64,000 bases of DNA from assembly GCF_028372415.1 (NCBI RefSeq), contig NC_092877.1, positions 388,814,342 to 388,878,341 on the forward strand. The letters run 5' to 3'. The notes under the pieces were generated by a model, which was not told where the DNA came from, made no database searches, and was given only the letters and a program-made list of their open reading frames with translations. The DNA comes from Notamacropus eugenii (lineage: Eukaryota; Chordata; Mammalia; Diprotodontia; Macropodidae). A program made the translations under genes and the position numbers. Positions 10,438 to 49,169 of this stretch are shown one piece after another (position 1 is the stretch's first letter; each line of letters begins with the position of its first letter).

Positions 10438-11767
10438 CAAACCTTTCTCACCAGACAGTGGTTCCTTGTTCTGGAGATGGCTATCACTGCAGGCTGTGCC
10501 AACCTGGGAGTCAGACTTCTCAAGCTGGTGTGGGTGTGGGATGTCCTTGCAGCCTGGGGCACAGCCAGAGTTTGCTTAGCAAGGGAGGAGATGCCAGGCT
10601 GGCTGCAGTCTCCATCCCTGTACGCAGGCTTTTTTTCATTTTAGGACCTGTGATGGTGGAAACAGCCCTCTCCAGTCAGAACTATCCTAGACCTCCCATC
10701 TCCTACACTGGAAGGAAGCCTTGTCAAAGCCCCAGAGAGGTTGGGGTCAAGTTTGATGGGGCCTCTTCCTTTCCCCTAGAGGTTTTCAGGACACCTCCTC
10801 AGCCCTGGCTGCCATCTTGGCAAACACAAGTGGGATTTGATGTTTTCTTGAGAGAAATATGACTTTTTGTTGGGGAATTTGTCCTCACCAGCCCATCCCT
10901 CCTAGGGCAATGAGGGATTCTGGCATACCAGGGTCAAGCAAAGCTCCATTGTAGGAGGGGCTTATGGGTCTTCATGTGTCTGCAGACTCCTGGAGGCTCT
11001 CAGGGGCTGGGGTGGGGGGAAGGGAAAGGGAGGAAGGAGACACTAAAGAAGGACAGACCTCCCAGAATCAAGGCTAGAATCCTAAAAACCCAAGAAGAAC
11101 GTTCTGGATTCTGCTCCCTCTCTCCATAGCTATGACATTCCCCTGGCCAACCTGTATCTCCTTTGCCTGCTCCTCCAGAGCTTGTCCTGAACTCCAATCC
11201 CACCCACTCTTTCTCAGCACCTTCTCATGCCCCTGATCTAGCTGTGGTCGCTTCCTAATCTTGACCCTTAGCATGACTCGGGGTTGACCATGGAGTGCTG
11301 AGTTTGGGGCTATACAATTTGTCAATGCTCTGAGGTCTTAGGTTTGTCCCAGTGAAGGAAGGATCCACTCAGAAGGGATCCTCAGGTCCGGAAGGGAATC
11401 TTGGTGCAAATAGTGGTGTTTGCTACTCTAAGGGGGGAGGAACTAAATTTTCCCATCTGATCCAGTTTCAGAGACTCCACACATCTCTTGGTTTCCATGA
11501 CAACAGCAATTCTCCCTCCCTCAAGCTCTTAGAAGCCACCCTCCAGCCCCCAGCCCTGGGGTTCTGCCCTAAGCTCTCCCATGTGACAGAACAGACCAGA
11601 TGGCAGGGCTCCCAGGCACGAAGGGGGCGGTGCATGGATATCACAGAGACCAAGAAGGGCACCGGAGAGTAAGGTGGGAAGGACTAGCCTTATCCGTGGC
11701 TGTCACAGGGGAGCAGACAAAGACTCTCTGGAAGCTGACCCCAGCTGGGAAACCAAATGCTGAGAAA
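10438..11767. other. unique, moderately GC-rich sequence, no gene recognised
   Basis: The longest frames (10458-10862 and 11352-11672, both +, 134 and 106 codons) overlap frames on the other strand and show no family motif. I do not consider them genes. Confidence 0.4.
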
Positions 11768-11822
11768 GTATGAGGAAACTGAGACAAGGAGGCCAAGGGT
11801 CACACAGCTAGGAAGTGTCTGG
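11768..11822 (-). repeat. SINE fragment
   Basis: A short reversed SINE piece, 'atgaggaaactgagacaagg' then 'gggtcacacagctaggaagt', very like 10340-10395. Confidence 0.7.
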
Positions 11823-12244: not shown

Positions 12245-13320
12245 CCCTGGACTTAGATTTTTAAAAACCTTCTTATTGATATATTTTGATTTTTCTACCA
12301 CATTTTCCACTGTTTCCTCTTCCCACCAGAGAACCACCAATTCTAACTAAAAAGAAAAGGAAAAATAATCCATCAAAACCAATTGACCCACTGAAAAATT
12401 CTGAAATTACTTACACTATTCCACATGTGTAGTCCCTACCTTCTGCTGAGAAATGGAGGAGGTGCTTTCTGTATCTCTTCTTATGGGCAGAACTGAGCTG
12501 GCTCCTTATACTTTCTCAGCATTTGGTTTCAAGTGTCTCCTAATGGTTGAAAATCCATTTTTAAAACCTTTACAATTTAGACCAGATTTGCACAGTAAGT
12601 CCCATTCTGTTGTATATTGCTCTTTGAAACACACGATTCCGTGACCTCTTGAATTTTCTGATGGGTGTCAACGAGTCTTACTATTTGAATTTGCTTTGCT
12701 TTGAATTTGAAGGCCTTTCTCCCGGACACCTGTAGAATTTGCTGTTTCTCAATGGAATTGTTCATTTTAATCACTCAGTGTCTTGGAATATGCTTTTGTT
12801 TTTCTTTTTCCTGGAGATGATCTATGGACTCTTTTGATTGGCACTTTGTGTCTGTGTTCAGAAATTCTGAGCAGTTTTCTTGTATCATTCCTTGAATTGT
12901 GGTATTCCAGTTTGTTTTGTTATTGCTTTCCACGGTTGCCTAGGAGACCTGTAATTCTTAGGTTGTCTCTAGGTATTCTGTCTTTGAGATCAATAGGTTT
13001 TGCTTGTATGAAGAGCATGTTTTCTTAGAATGTAATTGTTTTTAAAATCTCTTCTTCCAGATTTTCCTTCACTTTGGTGTATTTGCCTTTGCCATCAGAT
13101 GGCCTCTTTCGTTTCTGTGGTGAAACTTTCCACAACAGATTTAAGTTTTCTTTTCTTCTGCCAATTATGTCTATAGTGCAAGCCATAAATTTTGCTCTCA
13201 GAATTCTTATTTCTCTTTAAAAATCACTCAGGAGCAGTATGGTGTGGTTTCGTGAAGGTCTCAAAATCTGCAGGCTCCCCTGATAGTAAATAATTTTAAA
13301 CCAGGTGTTAAATAATGTTC
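12245..13320 (-). repeat. L1-like LINE fragments
   Basis: From about 12245 a reversed marsupial L1-type 3' segment ('cttattgatatattttgatt', 'tgtttcctcttcccaccaga'), followed from about 12650 by a reversed segment like the ORF1/coiled-coil region ('ctcagtgtcttggaatatgc', 'gagacctgtaattcttaggt'). All reading frames are broken. Confidence 0.6.
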
Positions 13321-15654: not shown

Positions 15655-17140
15655 AGAGAGGGAAGACTATATATTCACACTCAGTTAGGTATAGAAATCA
15701 ATCTTACCCAATAGGGAAATAGAAAGAAAAAGGGATAAGAGATGCAAGGGAAGGTGATGACGAAGGGGAGGGTGGATTAAGGAAGTCAGTGGTGAGAAGC
15801 AAAATGGACTTTTGAGGAGGGACAGGACGAAAAGACACAGAGGGATAAGCAGAAGAAAATAGGATGGAGGGAAGTACATAATTAGTCATCATAACTGAAT
15901 GGGAATGGGATGACCCATAAAACGGAAGGGGATGGCAGAATGTATTAGAAACCAGAATACAAAAATATATTGTGTACAAGAGACACACTTGAAACAGAAA
16001 GACATATGCAGAGTTAAAATGAAGGACTGGAGGAGAATCTAACATGCTTCAGCTGAAGACAAAAAGGAAAGGGTGGCAATCATGATTTCAGACAAAGCAA
16101 AAGCAGAAATAGATCTAATAAAAAGAGATATTCAGGGAAACCACATTTTGCTATAAGGAACCATACACAATGAAGTAATGGCAAAAAATTTAAGGGTAAA
16201 TTTCCCTTATTAAGTTTTCATTTCTCAAATATATGGGGAACTGAGTCAAATTTGTAAAAATTAGAAACAGTCCCTATTGATAAATGATAAAAGATATGAG
16301 CACGCAGTTTTCAGAAGTAGAAACCAAAGCAATCTATAGTAATATAAAAATACTCCAAATCACTGTTGATAAAAAATATAAATTAAAACAACTCTGTGGT
16401 ACCATCTCATACCTAGCAGAAATGACAAAAGCTGGAGAGGATAAGGAAAAAAGAGGGTCATTAACAGACTCTTGGTGGAATTGTGAACTGGTCCAAGCAT
16501 TCCAGAGAACAATTTGGATCTATGTTCACAGGGATATAAACCATGCACAGCCTTTGCCCTGGCAATACCTCTACTAGGTCTGTATCGCAAACATCAAAGA
16601 AAAAGGAAAATTACCTACACCTACCAAAAAACCCTGTTTATAGTGGTTCTTTTTGTGGTGGCAAAGAATTGGAAATTGAGGGGATGTCCATTAATTGGGG
16701 AATGGTTGAATTAGTTGTGGTACATGAATTGTGATAGATATTGTGCTGTAAAAATGACAAGGGAGTGGCTTCAGAAAAAAAAAAACAAACATGGGAAGAT
16801 CTATATGAACTGATGAAAAGTGTATTGAGAAGAACCAGGAGATATTTGTGTACAAGGACAGCCATGGCTACTCTGATCAATGCACTGATCCAAGACAATT
16901 CCAAAGTATTCATGAAGAAAAATGTTATCCACTTGCAGAGAAAGATCTGATGAACTCTGAGTGCAAATTGAAGCATATTTTTTTTTTGCTTTTTTGAGTT
17001 TTTTGGTGATATGGTTAACGTGGAAATATGCTTTGCATGATTTCATAAGGATAATTGATATTATTTTGTTTGCTTTTCCAGTGGATGGAGGAGGAGGAAG
17101 GGAGAGAATTTGAAACTCAACATTTAAAAAAAGAGGGCTA
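15655..17140 (+). repeat. L1 LINE with internal deletion: endonuclease part joined to ORF2 C-terminus and 3' UTR
   Basis: About 15655-16180 matches the start of an L1 ORF2 endonuclease region; in translation the signature 'ETHLKQK', 'VAIMISDKAKAEIDLIKRD' and 'GTIHNEV' is visible. At about 16190 the sequence jumps straight to the ORF2 C-terminal part (translated 'KYKLKQLCGTISYL' and 'WWNCELVQ'), then the marsupial L1 3' end ('aattggaaattgaggggatg', 'gaattttgaaactcaac'-like). The reverse-transcriptase core is missing. There are several stops, so the copy is dead. Confidence 0.85.
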
Positions 17141-21719: not shown

Positions 21720-21932
21720 CTCACTCATGCAGTCATACTCACACACACAGTCACATAAATATCCATCCACCCGTCCATCCAGACAGCCATCTCTCCATCT
21801 GTCCATCTATCTACTCATCCATCTGTCCATCCATCTATCCATCTGTCCTTATGTCCATCCATCTATCCATTTGTTCATCCATCCATCCATTTGTCCATCC
21901 ATCCATCCATCCATCATTTCATTTATTCATCT
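21720..21932. repeat. (CCAT)n / (CTGT) microsatellite
   Basis: Tetranucleotide CCAT units, imperfect at the left and cleaner toward 21880-21915. The Ser/His/Pro-rich frames over it are artefacts. Confidence 0.95.
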
Positions 21933-22006
21933 CAAGATGTGTCTACTTGAGTTGGGAGCTGGAAGGAGACCCACCCTGTGAATACTCCTGTAGTGTGAAA
22001 GTCTGA

Positions 22007-22177
22007 AGAAGTCTCAGAAGTCACCTCATTCAACTTCTTCATTTCACAGAGGTTAGGTGACTCATCTAATGTCATATAGCCAGGAAAGAGCAGAGTTGGG
22101 ATTCAAAGTGGGAGGCTCTGGCTCCAGATGCATCATCCTCTCCCTGTGAATTGGGCTTTGAAAATGAAAAGACAAAG
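22007..22177 (+). repeat. direct duplication copy A1 (pairs with 25794-25964)
   Basis: 171 bases align without gaps to 25794-25964 (constant offset 3787) with only two differences: T/C in 'catatagcc' versus 'catacagcc', and A/G in 'gggattc' versus 'ggggttc'. Much of it is a reversed MIR ('tttcacagaggttaggtgac'). Confidence 0.97.
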
Positions 22178-22251
22178 AAAGTAGCCTGGACAAAGACACA
22201 GAGGTGAGGAAACAGAAAGGTCCATGAAGACGGCAAAACTGTGTGTGGCAG

Positions 22252-22252
22252 G

Positions 22253-22341
<89 letters not shown>
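22252..22341. repeat. (GA)n microsatellite
   Basis: Nearly pure GA for about 90 bases. Confidence 0.97.
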
Positions 22342-22455
22342 GAAGAAGAGAGAGCCCCATTCATAAGGCTAAGCACAGTCCTGTAGGCTTTGAGGTGCAC
22401 AGACATGCCCAAGGATCACTGATGACAGTGTGGGGAGTGCTCAGGCCCATGAGAG

Positions 22456-22527
22456 TATGTGTGTGGGTGCTTGAATGTGTGGGAGTGTGTGTGTGTGAGT
22501 TTGTGTGTGTGTGTGTGTGTATGTGTG
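22456..22527. repeat. (GT)n microsatellite
   Basis: Imperfect TG repeats, cleanest at 22501-22520. Confidence 0.95.
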
Positions 22528-22639
22528 AAAGAGACAGAGAGATCTGACTTCCTGTTCCTTCTCTAAAGGATGGCCGCTCAGCACTTTCTGCTCCTACCCT
22601 CCAAAGGCGTAGGTGCTGGGGTGCTTCCAGGTCCATGAT

Positions 22640-23360
22640 CTGGGGCCCTAGCTATATTTATTCAGCTTGAACAAGCCCATTATGAAATCTTATTAAAGCA
22701 ATCAAGATTAATTATCATAAACAACTGATCTGGCCAAGTCAGAGCCTTCATGACAGGTGGACTCCAGCCTGAGAGAAGTCTCTGACTCCCGACAACTTAG
22801 TGCATTAAAAATATTTACGAGGGGGTGGAGGCCTGCAGTGATTAAAACAGTCTAGTTCATATCAGTCTGCATAGAGACAATTACAAAGCAATTCCATTAA
22901 TTAAAAGTAAAACTTAATTAAAGCCAGTGAGAGTTGGTGGTGATGCATCAATGCCTGAGCTCCAGAAGAGATGAGGCAAGAATGAAAAACGCTGGCCAGC
23001 CGGGCCAGCCACTGCACTCCCTGCTCAGGTGCTGGCAGGGCCCGCTCCAATGGATCTGTCAGCCACGATGCTCAACATCAGGCCACAAGCCAGCTCCAAT
23101 CACATCTAATAAAAGGTTGTAAGCTTTAACGCAAATCACATTAGCAAGACTGCGATGACAGCTGAGCAGGCGTGGTAGGTGCCAAGGAGGCGGCCCTCGC
23201 TTCCCAGTGCGCTGGGTCTTCAGAGCAACAGCCAGAATAAATAATAGTCAGCCTGCCTAATTGATAACAAATTGTCTTGGTACTGAATTTCCAGTAACAC
23301 ATTACACCCTCACACTGTCTGCTGTTGCTGAGTCTGTCCTGACACATTCCTGGTAGTGTG
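22640..23360. promoter_or_regulatory. long enhancer-like candidate conserved non-coding element
   Basis: About 720 bases with no recognised repeat and no sustained reading frame. Motifs: TAATTA at 22709-22714; TGACAG (22751-22756) overlapping the E-box CAGGTG (22754-22759); two TTAATTAA palindromes at 22897-22904 and 22914-22921, 17 bases start to start; and a later 'taattgataacaaattg' string. Dense homeodomain, TALE and bHLH cores in a long repeat-free block inside repeat-rich DNA are typical of developmental enhancers. Conservation has not been tested, and the target gene is unknown. Confidence 0.45.
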
Positions 23361-24379
23361 ATGCAAGGTTAATGGTAGCCACAGTCCCCCTCTCACCACA
23401 TCCTTGCAGCTGAACAAATCCCCCATGTGTAATATGGGCAAGCATCCTTGGAGAATGTGGACGAGCCACAGACCTGAAGGCCACCACATGGGATGGGGAA
23501 GGGAGCCAAGCCTTGGGTTTTTGGCTGTATGAAGTTAGGGGCTCCTCTCCCCTCCGTGGGATCCATTCTCCTTGCCCACAAAAATAAAGTGCTTTTGGTC
23601 AAGTTGGGCCTTCCCAGTTCACTTGGGATGTCCTGACTTCATCTCAAAGTGGACTTGGGGCAGGGCATCCAAATGTCCTGCTCACGGCTATTTTATCACC
23701 AGTTGTGTTCTCAGAGACTCCCCTACTACGCTACGAAGCTGCCATGACACATTTACTTCACGTTCACATTGGTTGTACCCTGTCTTGAGCACTCATATCC
23801 AGTTGTCAGCTGCCTCACAGCCTCTCCTTCTGCATGTCCTGGAGTTGGAGAACCAGGCCCTAGGGAGAGTGTGCAGGTGTATTGGATCTTCTCAGTAACT
23901 GGCCCAGGGCGCCTGAGGCCCTATGATGCTCCCAGGGTGGCTGGCACAACAGCCGTGGGGATGCCCTTTTTGTCACAGGTCCCAGATAGTTTTGGCCTTT
24001 GTGGGCTTTGTGACATTGTTTGTCCAAAAGGTCTTCTGCAGGAGAGGGTCTATGCCAGCCCTGTAGACTGGTCCTCCCTGGGCCGTCCCAGCCCCAGAGC
24101 AGGTCTGCAGAGGCAAGCTCCATCTATCAGAAAACATGCCCACAAGCCACACGGAGATGTCTGCTGTGCTCAGAGAGTCTCCACCTGGGTGTCAAGGTGG
24201 GTCATCAAGGAAGTACTGACTTCCTGGATCAACCTCAAGCCCAGCTTGGGATCAAACAAAAGGGAAAACAGTCAATACAGAGAGGCTTTGAGAGAGATAG
24301 TGTAAAGCTTATAAGGAATGAGACTCCCATGAGATGCCAGCATCTCTGTGCTGGAAAGAGAATCCCTTCCACTACCCCT
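23361..24379. other. unique sequence, no gene recognised
   Basis: Includes a 178-codon + frame (23769-24305) that overlaps an 87-codon minus frame and runs into repeat sequence. Its composition is not protein-like and no domain is seen. Confidence 0.4.
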
Positions 24380-24560
24380 GACAGTGGCTGTCTACCTTCT
24401 GCTTGGATACCTCCAGAGATAGGGAGTTCTGCCTTCTGGCCCTAAGCAGAATGAGCTCATCCCTCCTCCACAGGGTAAATAATCCTTCACATATCTGAGG
24501 ATGGCTCCCCCACTCCCTGGGAGTCTCTCCTGGGATTCTCCAGAATCCTGCCAGACCATT
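24380..24560 (-). repeat. CR1/L3-like LINE fragment
   Basis: Reversed CR1/L3 3' region: 'gtctaccttctgcttggata' and 'cctccagagatagggag', then 'cctaagcagaatgagctcat' and 'aataatccttcacatatctg'. Confidence 0.6.
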
Positions 24561-24674
24561 GATGCCCTCTATAAACAGTGATGCCCAGGACCAGGCATGT
24601 GGTGGCAGAGGGAGAAGATTCTGACAGTTTTCCAATGAGCAAGGGCCCAGTGTGCTGCATCAAATAGTGAGCTT

Positions 24675-24740
24675 CCTTTCACTGCAGATGTTCAAGCAGA
24701 GGCAGGACAATGACTGTACAGAAGATGTCTGACTGGGGGA
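24675..24740 (+). repeat. CR1/L3-like scrap
   Basis: 'ttcaagcagaggcaggacaa' followed by 'tgactg' resembles the forward CR1/L3 3' segment ('cttcaagcagaggctggatgaccac'). Confidence 0.45.
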
Positions 24741-24837
24741 GGGGGGAAAGGACCCCGAGGGACCTGGGGGCCCAAGTGAGCGGCAGTCCCCACTCATCAT
24801 TCACTGCAGTTGTGCCGGGGAGAGCTCATGATGGGGT

Positions 24838-24945
24838 GCAGAGAACCTGGGCTCAAACCCTGGCTCTGCTGATCACTGTCTGTGTAACCTTGAGAGAATC
24901 ACCTCACCCCTCTGGGCCTGCATTCATACTCTGTAAAAGGAGCAG
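24838..24945 (+). repeat. MIR
   Basis: Forward MIR: 'cctgggctcaaaccctggct' then 'actgtctgtgtaaccttgag' and 'attcatactctgtaaaagg'. Confidence 0.8.
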
Positions 24946-25793
24946 GTAGAGGCTTCCCTGCTGGTCTGGGATCCGGGGCCTGCTTGGAGCAGGGAATACC
25001 CAGACCTTGGTCTTTGATACACTCCGGGTGCTGCCCCCTCCTCTGCCCCTCTAGTGTAGTCAAGGAAGACCTGACTGGTCTCTGAAACCCCAGAGTCAAA
25101 GAGATAACTCCTAAGATGGGCCCTCAGGTCCCAGTTGCAGCCCCAGGAAGGAGCTGCTTCAACCTCTGGGGTCATGCTTCAACAGGGAAGCAAGGATGAC
25201 TTCTCTAGTCCCTGGGGAAAGTGACAGATGCACCCAGGACTCCTTCACACTCTACCAGGAGCCAGAGAAGGATCAAGAATGGACCTCGATGTCCACTGCA
25301 CAGGGGCCAGGGATGGTGGACACTGGACAGGAGATAGGGCCACTCACCTCTCCTTTTCCTTCTCTGCTGTCAATCAAGGGGAAGGAGCTTTGCACTAGAA
25401 AGGATAGAGTAAAGGTGGCTAACAGGGAACTGAACCTGCAGACAAGGCAGGAAGCAGGTGCCTGGCTGTGTTTGGTGAGCTGGCCCAGGTGACAGCATCC
25501 TTGGTCCTGGAAGAAGCAGCTGGAGGGACATAACTGCCCAGGCCTTGTGGACAACCTTTGAAAAGGGGGGCAGGGTGTGCTTGGGATAGCACTGGTGGCA
25601 ACAGCAGTCAGAAGACAAGTGTTCCTTCTCATCCCCAAATGCTGGACTTCTCTTGTAGAGACACTGCTGGGGCATCCAGAGAAGGAGGTGGAGACCTGCA
25701 CAGTGCCCTGCCGCAATAAGTAGACCCAGCAGCCCAGTGAGCCTCAAAGACAGAGCTCAGGCTTGTATCCCCCTGGCCCCAAGATTTTGGCAG
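24946..25793. other. unique sequence, no gene recognised
   Basis: Short frames on both strands (the longest is 25273-25716, minus, 147 codons, Ser/Pro-rich with no domain). Not considered coding. Confidence 0.4.
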
Positions 25794-25964
25794 AGAAGTC
25801 TCAGAAGTCACCTCATTCAACTTCTTCATTTCACAGAGGTTAGGTGACTCATCTAATGTCATACAGCCAGGAAAGAGCAGAGTTGGGGTTCAAAGTGGGA
25901 GGCTCTGGCTCCAGATGCATCATCCTCTCCCTGTGAATTGGGCTTTGAAAATGAAAAGACAAAG
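25794..25964 (+). repeat. direct duplication copy A2, left half of a 294-bp mosaic
   Basis: 171 bases at 98.8 percent identity to 22007-22177, in the same orientation. It is joined at base 25964 directly to sequence identical to 27601-27724. Confidence 0.97.
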
Positions 25965-26087
25965 CCACTCTTATCTGCCACCTCATTTGATCTTCACAGT
26001 AGCCCTGGTGGTGGGTGTGACCAGAAGTGTGATATCCATTTTACAAATGAGGAAACTGAGGCTTTGATTACATCAGCAGCAACACTG
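25964..26087 (+). repeat. direct duplication copy B1, right half of the mosaic
   Basis: 124 bases identical, without gap or mismatch, to 27601-27724 (constant offset 1637). It includes a reversed MIR part ('ccattttacaaatgaggaaa'). Sequence identity ends sharply on both sides. Confidence 0.97.
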
Positions 26088-26224
26088 TATTGCCCCTCTA
26101 AGATGGGAAGGTACCAGGGCAGCTGACCAGTGCAGATGGGTGAAGGGCTGGTGTCAGTTTGGCAATTAGACTTCGAGGCAGGGCCCCATGGACTCTGGCT
26201 TGGCCTGTGCTTTTGTATAGCTTG

Positions 26225-26420
26225 GAGAAAGGTGTGGATCACCTGTTTACCAGATTGGAGGATGACACAAAGCTGGGGCAGGTTTCTGCACAGAGGTGCC
26301 CAGCCTTGGGTGAGTGGCTTCTCTCCTGTCCCTACCTCAGGTTTCTCCTCTGTAGAATGGGGACAATCATTTCTAGACTTTCCCTTCCACTTTGTAAACC
26401 ACAAAGCACAGCTAAATGCC
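26225..26420 (+). repeat. CR1/L3 scrap followed by MIR 3' part
   Basis: 'gaggatgacacaaagctggg' (about 26261-26280) is a CR1/L3 signature. From about 26330, 'ggtttctcctctgtagaatg' and 'gggacaatcatttct' is a forward MIR. Confidence 0.5.
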
Positions 26421-26934
26421 AACAAGAGGGGCCTTATTCACAATTACAGGACATGCCCCCACAGGCCTTAACAACGACTGTTGGTTGAATCAGAAGGCAT
26501 GAAATGGGGCTCAAGGTAGGCAAAGGGGTGAGGTGTTGAGGAGGTTGGATGACAGGAGAAGGGAAGTCACTGTTTTAGGGAAATTGTGTGCCAGGTGCTG
26601 CCCACCCAGTGGCCCAAGAACCTGGCCCCCCACAGAGTCCCATTTGGTCAGATGCAGACAGCTGGGTAATTTCCCCCAGAACCTGGGGTCTTAGCTGATG
26701 AGTGTCAGCAGACTCGTCCAAGACAACTCACCGAGGGCATGGTGCCAGCCCACCTCTATCCAGCAGTGCATGTGCACACCCAGGGTGGGGGCAGGGCCTT
26801 TGTCTTCCTCTCACCTGGCAAACTTAAAAGGTACCACTCTGACCAGGCTGGAAGTTGCCCTGGGAGAGCTTGCAGGGTCTGAAGACCTGAGCTGGACTAC
26901 ATCGAAGGCAATTTCAGTTTGATGGGAACGCAGG
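26421..26934. other. unique sequence, no gene recognised
   Basis: Mixed composition, with no repeat or exon seen. Confidence 0.4.
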
Positions 26935-27065
26935 TCTCCAGACTTTCACTGCTATTAATAAAACTGATGGCAGGAGGTCAGTGACCTGGCCAGGCGGGTA
27001 CTATGCCCATCCTCTTAAAGTCACTATTTACAGCAGATTTCATTCGTCGTGAACATCCTGGAGTG
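26935..27065. promoter_or_regulatory. short unique island, weak conserved-element candidate
   Basis: 'gctattaataaaactgatgg' and 'taaagtcactatttacagca' are repeat-free and AT-rich compared with the GC-rich neighbours. This is a weak inference. Confidence 0.2.
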
Positions 27066-27600
27066 AACAAGGACTGGAAAGCAGAGGCTTTGGGGTTAGC
27101 TGTGCTGGGGTGGGCCTGGGTGGGCGGTGGAGTTAGAGGTGAAGGGCCTCCCTTTGGCTCTGCTTTGTCAGGGACTCTCAGCTTTCTCCCCTCTAACTTC
27201 CAGGATCCGGTGGGAGCTTCCCCAGGTGTCCCCTCTCCTCCTCACCCCTTTTGTCAGGTTCCCCCCACCCAGGGAGGGCTGGGCAAGAAGGGAAAGGACA
27301 GTCCTGGAGGATGGGAAACCTAGAATCCTGGGCTAGTGTCCCCTCCCTCCCATTCTTCACTTCCCTGATGGGGCTGGGCAAGGTGACCTCTAAGAATTTT
27401 CCTGCTCCGGCCTCCAACAATCAGATGGAGGGATCCAGCTCCATGATCTCAGCTGCAGGGTTGCTCTGGGTCAAGTCTCTTCTGGCCACACAATCAGGCC
27501 CTGGGCCTCATTTGTCTCATGATCACTGACTTCAGTGCCTGTCCCAGGGTTGGGGGAAGCAGGGGTCCTTATATCTGTGTCCTGTCCCATCCTGGAGGCT
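27066..27600. other. GC-rich unique sequence, no gene recognised
   Basis: Frames on both strands (for example 27003-27323 + and 27193-27420 -) overlap each other, which argues against coding. Confidence 0.4.
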
Positions 27601-27724
27601 GCCACTCTTATCTGCCACCTCATTTGATCTTCACAGTAGCCCTGGTGGTGGGTGTGACCAGAAGTGTGATATCCATTTTACAAATGAGGAAACTGAGGCT
27701 TTGATTACATCAGCAGCAACACTG
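27601..27724 (+). repeat. direct duplication copy B2 (pairs with 25964-26087)
   Basis: Identical over 124 bases to 25964-26087. Flanks differ completely ('ggaggct' before, 'aaaccc' after). Confidence 0.97.
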
Positions 27725-28649: not shown

Positions 28650-28662
28650 ACACACACACACA

Positions 28663-28693
<31 letters not shown>

Positions 28694-28694
28694 G
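28650..28694. repeat. (CA)n microsatellite
   Basis: CA repeats with one CATA interruption. Confidence 0.97.
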
Positions 28695-29084
28695 TTTCAT
28701 CAAAAAAGCAAAATGGAGTGCGGGCTTTGGTTCTACAGATCCACTTCAAAGACAGTTCTCTTTTCTCTCTCCTGCCCAGGGCCAGGAGCCACAAAGAGCA
28801 GAAGAGGCTTAGTCAATCCCCACCTGGCCAATCAATGTTGGTGGGTCACTCCTCCTCTGTCCATATTGACTTACCCTTTGATTAGCGCCTAGGGGCTTCG
28901 GGGCTCAGTGGGCACCTGTGGATCAATGCCATTTTATATCACTGGTAGGGGCATGAACAAGGTGGGCAGCAGAATTCACTCTTCCAGACAGAAGGAGTTG
29001 AGAGGCAACTGATTGCTGCTGATGCTCCTGCGTAGAGGCAGACCTGGTCCCTTCAGAATCACAAAAGAAGCTTCTTGCTCCCCC
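28695..29084. other. unique sequence, no gene recognised
   Basis: Nothing recognised. Confidence 0.4.
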
Positions 29085-33929: not shown

Positions 33930-34200
33930 GCCCGTCAGTTAAATACCTACGATGTACCAGACATATTCAAACACAAAAAGTAAACAGTCTCTGCCCCCAG
34001 GTGGCTTACATACTCTCATCTAAAAGTACAGACATAGTGAGTACATAGACAATAGATATGAAACCACAAGGCTGGGATTGGGACAGGAGGACCTGGATTG
34101 GGACAGGAGGACCTGCAGGGTCCAGAAAAGACCTCACAGTGTACGAGGTGTCTCTGAAGTTGAACTTGGAAGAAAACCAGAGACTTTAAGTCTGCCAAGA
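33930..34200 (-). repeat. L2 3' region with a 20-bp tandem duplication
   Basis: Reversed L2: 'ttaaatacctacgatgtacc', 'ggtggcttacatactctcat'. Within it 34075-34094 and 34095-34114 are an exact 20-base tandem duplication. Confidence 0.65.
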
Positions 34201-36807: not shown

Positions 36808-38100
36808 GGATGAAAACTGTTTTCAAAACTGCACTGCACTATGACAGAAACTAGGCATACACCAGCACCTCACATCATCCACCAAGATAAGGTGAGAATG
36901 GGCATATGATTTAGATATAGAGGGCAATGCCATGAGCAAATTAAGGGGAGCATGGAGTAGTTTGCCTGTCATATACATGGAGAAGGGAACATTTAGGATC
37001 AAACAAGAAATAAAGAGCATCACCAAATGTGAGATGAATCATTTTGATTATAATAAATCAAAAAGGGTTTGTACAAACAAAACCCATATGTAACCAAAAT
37101 TAGAAGAAAGAAGAAAGCTAGGATAAATTTTTACAGCAAACATCTTTGATAAAGGTCTCATTTCTCAAATAGATAGAAAATGGAGTCAAATTTATACAGC
37201 TACAAGTCATTTCCCAATTGATAAATGGTCAAAGGATATTAAGAGGCATATTTCAAATGAAGAAATCAAAGCCATCTATAGTCATATGAAAAATGTTCTA
37301 AATCACTATTGATTAGAAAAATGCAAATTAAAACAACTCACAGATCCTACCACCTCATACTTAGCAGATTGGCTGATAGGAAAAGGAAAATGATGAATAT
37401 TGGAGGGGATGTGGGAAAATGGGGACACCAGTGTGCTGTTAGTGGAGTTGTGAACTAACTTCATTCTTTTGACCCAGCAATACCACCAGTAGGTCTATAT
37501 ACCCAAGAGATAAAAAGGGAGGGGGACCTATTTGTACAAAAATATTTATAGTATTTTTGTGGTGGCGAAGAACTGGAAATTGAGGGGATGCCTATCAAAT
37601 AAGGAATGGCTGAACAATATTGTTGTGTTATAAGAAATGACAAGCAGAATGATTTCAGAAAAACCTAGAAAGACTTGCATGAACTGATGCAGAGAAAATT
37701 GAGCAGAGTTAGGAGAACATTGTACACAGTAACAGCAATATCGCATAACGAATTGTAAATAACTTAACAGCTCTCAGCAATGCAATGATCCAAAACAATT
37801 CCAAAAGATTCATGATGGAAAATGATCTCTGTCTCCAGAGAAAGAACTGGTGGAGTCTGAATGCAGACCAAAGCATGCTATTTTTCACTTTTTTCCTTAT
37901 TTTTTTGTTTGAGTTTTCTCCCACAAAAATGACTAATACGGAAATGTTTTACATGATTGTACATGTGTAACCTATATCAGATTGCCTACCATCTCAAGGA
38001 GAGGTAGGGGAAGGGGGAGAAGGAGGAGAGAATTTGGAACTCAAAAAAATGTTTAAAATTGTTTTACATGTAATTGGGAAAAATACTATTAAAAAGAAAA
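36808..38100 (+). repeat. L1 LINE, ORF2 C-terminal part and 3' end
   Basis: Runs from within ORF2 ('gagaatgggcatatgattta', 'tttgtacaaacaaaacccat') through 'tcatttcccaattgataaat', 'ggaaattgaggggatgccta' and 'gaacattgtacacagtaaca' to the A-rich 3' terminus at about 38100. Many stops break the frame. Its 5' break coincides with the end of the SINE at 36806. Confidence 0.9.
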
Positions 38101-48110: not shown

Positions 48111-49169
48111 CATTTTATCTTTTATTGTTTATATTATTCATCACACAGATACTGTCTTTGTGTTCTCACTGCCAATCAGACAATGTGGGTATAGTTTTAA
48201 AATAAAACCAAGTGTCAAACAGAAAAAAACTATTCCAGCAACCACAATTAACAAATAGGCTTACTTACCCAGGCTATAAGCCAAAGCTGAAGATGTCAAG
48301 ACAATATTCACGATCCTTTTCTAAGTCTCTTCTTAGGTCCCACATAGGAGTTCTTTCATTCCCCCAATTTCTCCCCCACCAGGTTTCCTTGGGTACCAGT
48401 TTCTTAGGACCCAATTGCCTGTCTTCCTCCTCACTATTTGGTATCCTATGATTATCTGTATCTGTCAGTCAATGAGAGTTGACTCCTTCCAGCTCTATCT
48501 ACAAGACCTTGTTATAATATTTTTTGGTCTGACTTAATTAACTTCTTTACCTATCACCAGTCAAAAGATGTTTCTTGACTTCTAATACTTTCTATTTTAT
48601 CCCATTTCCCCCTTTACTTAGGAAAAGTGATTGGGAGATGCACCAGAGATTGAATTTTGGGAGGCAAAAGTTGGGAGGACTTGAGATGTTGAAGGAAGGA
48701 AGAAAGGACAAGCAGGAGGAAGACTAAAGCAAGATGACCCAAAAAGAAAGCGATAGAAGGAGGAGTATTAAGGGTAAGAGGAGTCAAGAAGGAAAGAGAA
48801 AAGTGACTGCAGAAAGGAAAGAAAAGTAAGTGAGATGGGCAAATAAGACAAGTCAGCAAGACAAAGGACAAGAAGGTGCTCAATGTTTTAAAGAGCTGAT
48901 GAAGTATTGATGAGGTAAGAGAAAAAAGAAAGAAGGCAGGAAGCAATGGTGACAGAGGAGAAGGACAGAGAGTGCCAGGCATACTAAAGCTCTGGATGGA
49001 CTCCATGGAACCACATGCCACCACCTTCTCCTCCCTCCCCCTGCCCAAGAATGACTGAGATCTCTACATTTTCTAGCTCATACTCGGCTGCCTCTCAGCT
49101 TTTACTCCTCCCTCCCAAAGCCTTCCTCTGTAGAGGGCTCACAGCCTTCCTGGAAACTCCATTTTCCAT
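48111..49169. other. unique sequence with a purine-rich block
   Basis: 48640-48990 is A/G-rich (GAAGGAAG, GAGAAAAG) without a regular unit. The 144-codon minus frame over it is Leu/Ser/Phe-rich low complexity. No gene. Confidence 0.4.

What the first reader, a model, noticed from the sequence alone, without database searches (positions are those of the whole stretch)
25794..26087. A 294-bp segment is an exact fusion of two pieces found 3.8 kb upstream and 1.6 kb downstream
25794-25964 matches 22007-22177 without gaps, with two mismatches in 171 bases. From the same base, 25964-26087 is 100 percent identical to 27601-27724. The junction has a one-base overlap (G 25964). Both parts contain old MIR sequence, but old MIRs would differ by 20 percent or more, so the copying is recent. 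All three sites are in the same orientation and their flanks are unrelated. The pattern fits replication template switching (one strand copying A, then B, then returning), or insertion of a deletion-circle product. A misassembly must also be considered.
Basis: seen in the sequence. Interest (0 to 1): 0.75.

Follow-up and report, generated by a model that had tools for sequence, protein, structure and literature searches.

The report
Two-donor copied insertion in marsupial DNA
A 294-base stretch of what looks like noncoding marsupial DNA appears to be a recent patch stitched together from copies of two nearby sequences, a kind of DNA-repair scar already known from human genomes, so it is real but ordinary.

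Summary
25794-25964 copies 22007-22177 (171 bp, 2 mismatches) and 25964-26087 copies 27601-27724 (124 bp, none), sharing one G. In the own 3.445-Gb assembly these three sites are the only near-identical copies found, and searches with the two flanks of the insertion site find no other near-identical place.

Best reading: one complex templated insertion, in which a break or stalled fork at 25793/26088 was repaired with sequence from donor A, then donor B. The copies are direct and in genomic order; joint overlaps are 0, 1 and 1 bp. No target-site duplication of 4 bp or more, poly-A or splice signal was found. Sequence evidence that donor A is the older copy is suggestive only; for donor B there is none. 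The deletion-circle idea fails on joint polarity.

The kind is known: two people examined carried 103 and 99 germline templated insertions of 25 bp or more, 33 and 26 of them complex (PMC8421209, passages). Template switching and fragment capture cannot be separated here. Misassembly is unlikely but was not tested with reads; no outgroup was available.

The parts
22007..22177 (+). donor A (source copy). It holds an antisense MIR-like SINE piece plus about 50 bp not matched by the SINE profile, and lies between a (ATCC)n-type array (21766-21915) and a (GA)n array (22253-22354).
   Evidence: identity; SINE profile; SINE relatives beyond 22007 (suggestive); arrays; distances
25794..25964 (+). first part of the insertion, copy of donor A with 2 mismatches
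   Evidence: the only near-identical partner found in the assembly is donor A
25964..26087 (+). second part of the insertion, exact copy of donor B; shares G 25964 with the first part
27601..27724 (+). donor B (source copy), holding an antisense MIR-like core
25793..25794 (.). left joint (site to A): 0 bp overlap
26087..26088 (.). right joint (B back to site): 1 bp overlap (G) if the empty site was 25793 joined to 26088; no target-site duplication of 4 bp or more found

Best explanation
A complex templated insertion made in one germline event. SHOWN: 294 bases between 25793 and 26088 equal two sequences 3.8 kb upstream and 1.6 kb downstream, both direct and in genomic order, joined with 0-1 bp overlap, with the donors still in place. 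INFERRED: a double-strand break or collapsed fork at 25793/26088 was healed with sequence from donor A and then donor B. Most likely this was by DNA synthesis that switched templates on a sister chromatid, homologue or the same fork (MMBIR/FoSTeS-type or polymerase-theta/alternative end joining; about 0.55), otherwise by capture of two small fragments (about 0.25, first rival). The insert is a passive scar; no function and no coding context was found. The confidence of 0.8 is for the one-event, two-donor reading by either route.
For: Exact two-part identity and abutting boundary. The donors are the closest copies found in 3.445 Gb, and flank searches find no other near-identical place. Joint overlaps are 0, 1 and 1 bp; the only flank matches in the target-site-duplication search were two 3-bp strings at offset positions. 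Longest A or T run in the insert is 4, and there is no GT/AG at the A-B joint on either strand. Polarity, A side: with seven SINE relatives the bases beyond 22007 at donor A match better than random flanks do (share of random flanks as good: 0.004, 0.024, 0.025 for 20, 30, 45 bp), those beyond 25794 in the fusion do not (0.90, 0.90, 0.64). With L035 alone, the only one of the seven that the fusion query also found, the shares are 0.006, 0.001, 0.004 vs 1.0. Substitution polarity: at one of the two differences 18 of 18 SINE copies (11 of 11 from the window itself) carry the donor base. In SINE sense the fusion reads B core then A, not the order of the SINE. Same kind in print: PMC8421209 (passages).
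Against: Joint overlap is no more than chance gives, so a microhomology-driven mechanism is not shown. The seven A relatives were found with a donor-A query that included its flank, which favours the donor; L029's match itself crosses the boundary by 7 bases. Without L029 the donor shares weaken to 0.07, 0.14, 0.15 (fusion 0.82, 0.86, 0.44). The second A difference is undecided: 11 copies like the fusion, 5 like the donor, 2 gaps. For B there is no signal on either side. Right side with orientation corrected: donor 0.30, 0.31, 0.17 vs fusion 0.33, 0.49, 0.64. Left side: donor 1.0, 1.0, 0.91 vs fusion 0.37, 0.47, 0.39. An earlier run with one of five relatives wrongly oriented and one with 23 relatives (right side only) agree. 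No outgroup, reads or second haplotype was examined.
Confidence: 0.8

Rival explanations
1. Fragment capture (a route within the one-event reading, not outside its 0.8): short DNA pieces released from A and B, for example meiotic SPO11 double-cut fragments or displaced flaps, were ligated head to tail into a break at 25793 with little or no synthesis.
For: Blunt-like joints fit end joining. Ectopic inserts of double-cut fragments in Atm-/- mouse spermatocytes are 15-967 bp, median 95 bp (PMC12918824, passages), a range that holds 171 and 124 bp. The window ends 0.73 Mb from the contig end, and indels at human hotspots are raised near telomeres (PMC7615360, passages).
Against: Donors are intact on this chromosome, so the pieces must have come from another chromatid. 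Two fragments from within 5.7 kb, both direct and in genomic order, have a chance of about 1 in 8 under random capture (inference). No hotspot map was available.
Confidence: 0.25
2. RNA-templated patch (class 2 templated sequence insertion or template-jumping reverse transcriptase) from a transcript of this locus.
For: Class 2 insertions lack target-site duplication and poly-A (PMC5110952, abstract and passages), as here.
Against: Donors are 1.6 and 3.8 kb away, while the experimental ones mapped to 18 of 24 human chromosomes. The A-B joint has no GT/AG signals on either strand. No transcript was tested.
Confidence: 0.08
3. The fusion is the ancestral copy, and A and B are two later copies of its halves.
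For: One of the two A differences is undecided. The B flank tests give no polarity, and the A flank test weakens to 0.07-0.15 when L029 is left out.
Against: It needs two independent copyings whose borders meet at the same base. At the clearer difference 18 of 18 SINE copies carry the donor base, and the SINE-like flank match is on the donor A side only.
Confidence: 0.06
4. Stepwise ordinary events: tandem duplications of 22007-25793 and of 26088-27724, followed by one deletion joining 22177 to 27601.
For: Gives exactly the same final order (reasoned from the coordinates).
Against: Needs three events and two duplications that share one breakpoint; self-BLAST shows no further near-identical duplicated sequence in the window.
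Confidence: 0.04
5. Assembly artefact.
For: No reads could be examined.
Against: Two base differences between the A copies; flank searches find no other near-identical place; three precise false joints would be needed.
Confidence: 0.05

Closest known systems
Complex MMB-TI (templated insertions linked to microhomology-mediated break-induced replication) in human germlines, PMC8421209 (passages)
   Same: Insert >=25 bp, more than one template possible, germline, generally without larger rearrangement
   Different: Seen here only as assembled sequence of what looks like a marsupial, without an empty allele to compare; joint overlaps only 0-1 bp
FoSTeS/MMBIR complex insertions with iterative template switches in patients, PMC5120786 (passages)
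   Same: Serial copying from several donors; some blunt joints
   Different: Those accompany copy-number changes and insertions into other chromosomes or non-adjacent loci; here 294 bp, all within 5.7 kb
Complex insertions at human meiotic hotspots, PMC7615360 (passages)
   Same: Inserted sequence with homology to more than one locus; template switching invoked; indels raised near telomeres
   Different: No hotspot evidence here
Class 2 templated sequence insertion polymorphism, PMC5110952 (abstract and passages)
   Same: No target-site duplication, no poly-A, end-joining-like joints
   Different: Donors there are distant; here two local donors
Complex templated insertions at yeast breaks, PMC11724301 (abstract and passages)
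   Same: Two sequences from one locus joined in one insert
   Different: The common yeast event has the two in inverted orientation; here both are direct

Membership tests
Complex templated insertion (MMB-TI, >1 template) | Insert >=25 bp identical or nearly so to another place | tested here: met
   171 bp (99%) and 124 bp (100%)
Complex templated insertion (MMB-TI, >1 template) | More than one template in one insert, donors retained | tested here: met
Complex templated insertion (MMB-TI, >1 template) | Microhomology at joints above chance | tested here: not met
   0, 1 and 1 bp; this lowers the claim 'MMBIR', not 'templated insertion'
Complex templated insertion (MMB-TI, >1 template) | Insert absent from the ancestral or reference allele | not testable with these tools
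   no relative genome or second haplotype; indirect SINE test suggestive on the A side, none on the B side
Class 1 templated insertion / LINE-1 retrotransposition | Target-site duplication >=5 bp, poly-A, TTTT/A site | tested here: not met
   only two 3-bp matches near the ends, and the printed 40 bases either side of the joint hold no TTTTA; longest A or T run 4
Class 2 templated sequence insertion | No target-site duplication or poly-A, end-joining-type joints | tested here: met
Class 2 templated sequence insertion | Donor from a distant region | tested here: not met
   donors 1.6 and 3.8 kb away
Class 2 templated sequence insertion | RNA-derived patch | not testable with these tools
   no transcript data
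Processed (spliced) retrocopy | Joint at GT-AG splice sites | tested here: not met
   both strands
Insertion of an excised circle | Joint from the far end back to the near end of one segment | tested here: not met
   coordinates: 22177 joins forward to 27601
SPO11 double-cut fragment insertion | Donors and site are meiotic break hotspots | not testable with these tools
   no break map; fragment sizes fit
Tandem duplication | Copies adjacent | tested here: not met
   start-to-start spacing 3787 and 1637

The most novel reading that the evidence does not exclude
Donors are chosen because they sit beside fork-stalling repeats: donor A lies in a 337-bp corridor with an (ATCC)n-type array 92 bp to its left and a (GA)n array 76 bp to its right. 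The serial, direct-orientation, genomic-order copying would then reflect one fork that stalled at repeats and re-engaged same-polarity templates, a recognisable process shaping this chromosome end. The chance that a random 171-bp segment outside the arrays is so bracketed in this window is 0.0017, but the test was made after seeing the data and donor B does not follow it (0.24).
Probability: 0.1. Interest if true: 0.4.

Novelty: new member of a known kind. Interest (0 to 1): 0.22.

Why it matters
It is a clean example of how germline repair can write a two-source patch into DNA. Both donors are within 4 kb and few later mutations blur the record, so it would be a useful entry in a genome-wide census of such scars outside humans. 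On its own it changes nothing that is known.

Tried and rejected
Circle insertion was rejected on joint polarity. Retrotransposition or spliced cDNA was rejected: no target-site duplication of 4 bp or more, no poly-A, no splice sites. Ancestral intact SINE was rejected because the order of SINE parts is wrong. An early SINE profile ran across the 25794 boundary after the fusion itself had entered the model; rebuilt with the three loci masked, it no longer did. I first took a CTTCCAGCTC-like string at 21956-21967 for the SINE end at donor A; relatives suggest that the SINE runs directly past 22007 instead, so I dropped that. Scanning 264 kb for recalled SINE-tail motifs gave too few clear copies to use (3 and 11 matches, against 2 and 2 in a shuffle). 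A shorter MIR-core model did not reach the boundaries and was not used. The B polarity test failed three times. In checking this report I found that the A polarity test used relatives found with a donor query, and reran it without L029; it weakened, and I raised the 'fusion is ancestral' rival from 0.04 to 0.06. Additional short donors in the joint flanks: only 13-bp exact matches elsewhere, not pursued. Rfam at gathering threshold: 0 matches. Pfam on 20 of the 67 listed open frames of >=110 aa: 0 matches at E<=0.01; short exons would be missed. Dating against the LTR-like pair is not significant (2 of 295 vs 10 of 611, Fisher p 0.36).

Full report
Observation. The finding is exact. 25794-25964 equals 22007-22177 except at two bases, and 25964-26087 equals 27601-27724 with no difference; G 25964 belongs to both. 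The repeat finder gives the same pairs, with B extended a further 13 poorly matching bases. Beyond the stated ends the sequences are unrelated: 0, 4, 4, 6, 7 and 8 of 20 identical in 20-bp comparisons, and in the flanks scanned no exact match longer than 13 bp other than the copies themselves.

How unusual. The window holds 33 self-matching pairs at E<=1e-6. The other 31 are 64.1-92.6% identical (not classified one by one), so the two pairs at 98.8% and 100% stand apart. In 264 kb (20 fetched stretches upstream plus the window) 4 of 168 pairs (E<=1e-8) are >=94% identical and >=40 bp. Two are ours. One is a 611-bp pair 4.07 kb apart with several marks of LTRs: TG start, purine tract before the second copy, 5-bp flanking repeat GCTGT, 10 differences; the matched stretch does not end in CA. 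One is a 69-bp pair 76 kb apart. A run with other scoring, of which I listed only pairs within 15 kb, at least 22 bp and of adequate complexity, adds a tandem array (one pair 104 bp, 99%, 202 bp apart) and shorter or less similar pairs. So among non-tandem, non-LTR pairs within 15 kb these two are the only ones of >=40 bp and >=94% identity that I found in 264 kb, apart from a 70-bp pair at 95.7% that lies 13.2 kb apart and was not classified.

Whole genome. The window is C23:388814342-388878341 of an unnamed 3.445-Gb, 254-contig assembly; it ends about 0.73 Mb from the end of a 389.6-Mb contig. Of 55 candidates for the 481-bp fusion query 40 were scored: three are the fusion, donor A and donor B; the other 37 fall in the SINE-like parts. 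The left-flank query (294 bp) finds only itself. The right-flank query (313 bp) finds itself and two pieces at 83-84%. The tool warns that very common words are skipped. No second copy of the site and no empty copy was found.

Which copy is derived. A SINE profile from 22 window copies, with the three loci masked, matches A over consensus 19-109 and B over about 110-201, antisense. In SINE sense the fusion reads B then A, so it is not an intact old SINE. For A, seven SINE relatives match the bases beyond 22007 better than random flanks do (0.004, 0.024, 0.025 for 20, 30, 45 bp), while the bases beyond 25794 do not (0.90, 0.90, 0.64). This test is biased towards the donor, because the relatives were found with a donor-A query that included its flank. 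Without L029, whose match crosses the boundary, the donor values weaken to 0.07, 0.14, 0.15 against 0.82, 0.86, 0.44. With L035 alone, the one relative that the fusion query also found, they are 0.006, 0.001, 0.004 against 1.0. I call this suggestive. For B there is no signal. Right side, orientation corrected: donor 0.30, 0.31, 0.17, fusion 0.33, 0.49, 0.64. Left side: donor 1.0, 1.0, 0.91, fusion 0.37, 0.47, 0.39. The earlier run with one of five relatives wrongly oriented gave right side 0.27, 0.30, 0.08 vs 0.30, 0.47, 0.60 and left side 0.92, 0.95, 0.96 vs 0.51, 0.62, 0.42. The run with 23 relatives gave right side 0.51, 0.57, 0.32 vs 0.59, 0.63, 0.58. Of the two A differences, at one 18 of 18 SINE copies (11 from the window, 7 fetched) carry the donor base. 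The other is undecided, 11 like the fusion, 5 like the donor, 2 gaps. The stronger argument is parsimony: one insertion against two independent copyings that meet at one base.

Age. Two differences in 295 bp is 0.68% (95% interval 0.08-2.4%). The nearby LTR-like pair differs by 1.6% (0.8-3.0%); the two are not significantly different. 'Recent' is fair. No calendar date is given, because no rate was tested.

Mechanism. The path is 25793 back to 22007, copy 171, forward to 27601, copy 124, back to 26088, all in one orientation. Overlaps are 0, 1 and 1 bp, which is unremarkable: by the formula quoted in PMC12918824 about 44% of random joints show at least 1 bp. No target-site duplication of 4 bp or more was found, A/T runs are at most 4, and there is no GT or AG at the A-B joint on either strand. 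This speaks against standard retrotransposition and spliced cDNA and leaves break repair with copied or captured DNA. Iterative template switching explains the two donors, the direct orientation and the genomic order in one event. Capture of two small fragments explains the blunt-like joints equally well but predicts this orientation and order about one time in eight (inference). Both have parallels in germ cells: MMB-TIs in two people, up to five templates (PMC8421209, passages), complex inserts at meiotic hotspots (PMC7615360, passages), ectopic double-cut fragments of 15-967 bp in Atm-/- mice (PMC12918824, passages). In patients, blunt joints are also reported among iterative template switches (PMC5120786, passages). 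In yeast, distant templated insertions come from fragile regions; the common complex ones are two pieces from one locus in inverted orientation, unlike the direct pair here (PMC11724301, abstract and passages). PMC7954356 was seen as outline and abstract only and is not relied on.

Context. Donor A lies between two simple-repeat arrays, 92 bp to the left and 76 bp to the right. A random 171-bp segment is so bracketed with frequency 0.0017 in this window, a post hoc figure. Donor B's nearest array is 441 bp away (0.24) and the insertion site's more than 2 kb. It is a lead only. Of 67 listed open frames of >=110 aa the 20 that I gave to Pfam had no match, so no coding context was found; short exons are not excluded.

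Verdict. Real, apparently recent, single-locus, two-donor templated insertion; a new member of a known kind; low to moderate interest.

Noticed in passing
L028 (C23:388805322-388810003), about 4-9 kb upstream of the window: 611-bp direct pair, 98.4% identical, 4.07 kb apart, TG start, purine tract before the second copy and a GCTGT 5-bp flanking repeat (no CA end in the matched stretch): an endogenous-retrovirus-like insertion with a short (3.46 kb) interior. Observed only.
   Followed up: partly
window 11749-11776 and 12503-12530: 28-bp inverted copies, 96% identical, about 0.75 kb apart; could be a short inverted template switch or a repeat-family piece.
   Followed up: no
window 22474-22520 and 28650-28696: (GT)n and (CA)n tracts, 89% complementary over 47 bp, that lie on either side of the insertion site.
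   Followed up: no
window 34075-34115: Two perfect tandem copies of a 20-bp unit.
   Followed up: no
upstream 264-kb string 48242-48591 (L013, C23 about 388662583-388662932): Minisatellite-like array with CTCTGGGCTAGT-type units; one pair of 104 bp at 99% identity.
   Followed up: no
window 16209-16995 and 37149-37894: 828-column alignment at 64% identity between two places, perhaps an old repeat-family pair; not classified.
   Followed up: no
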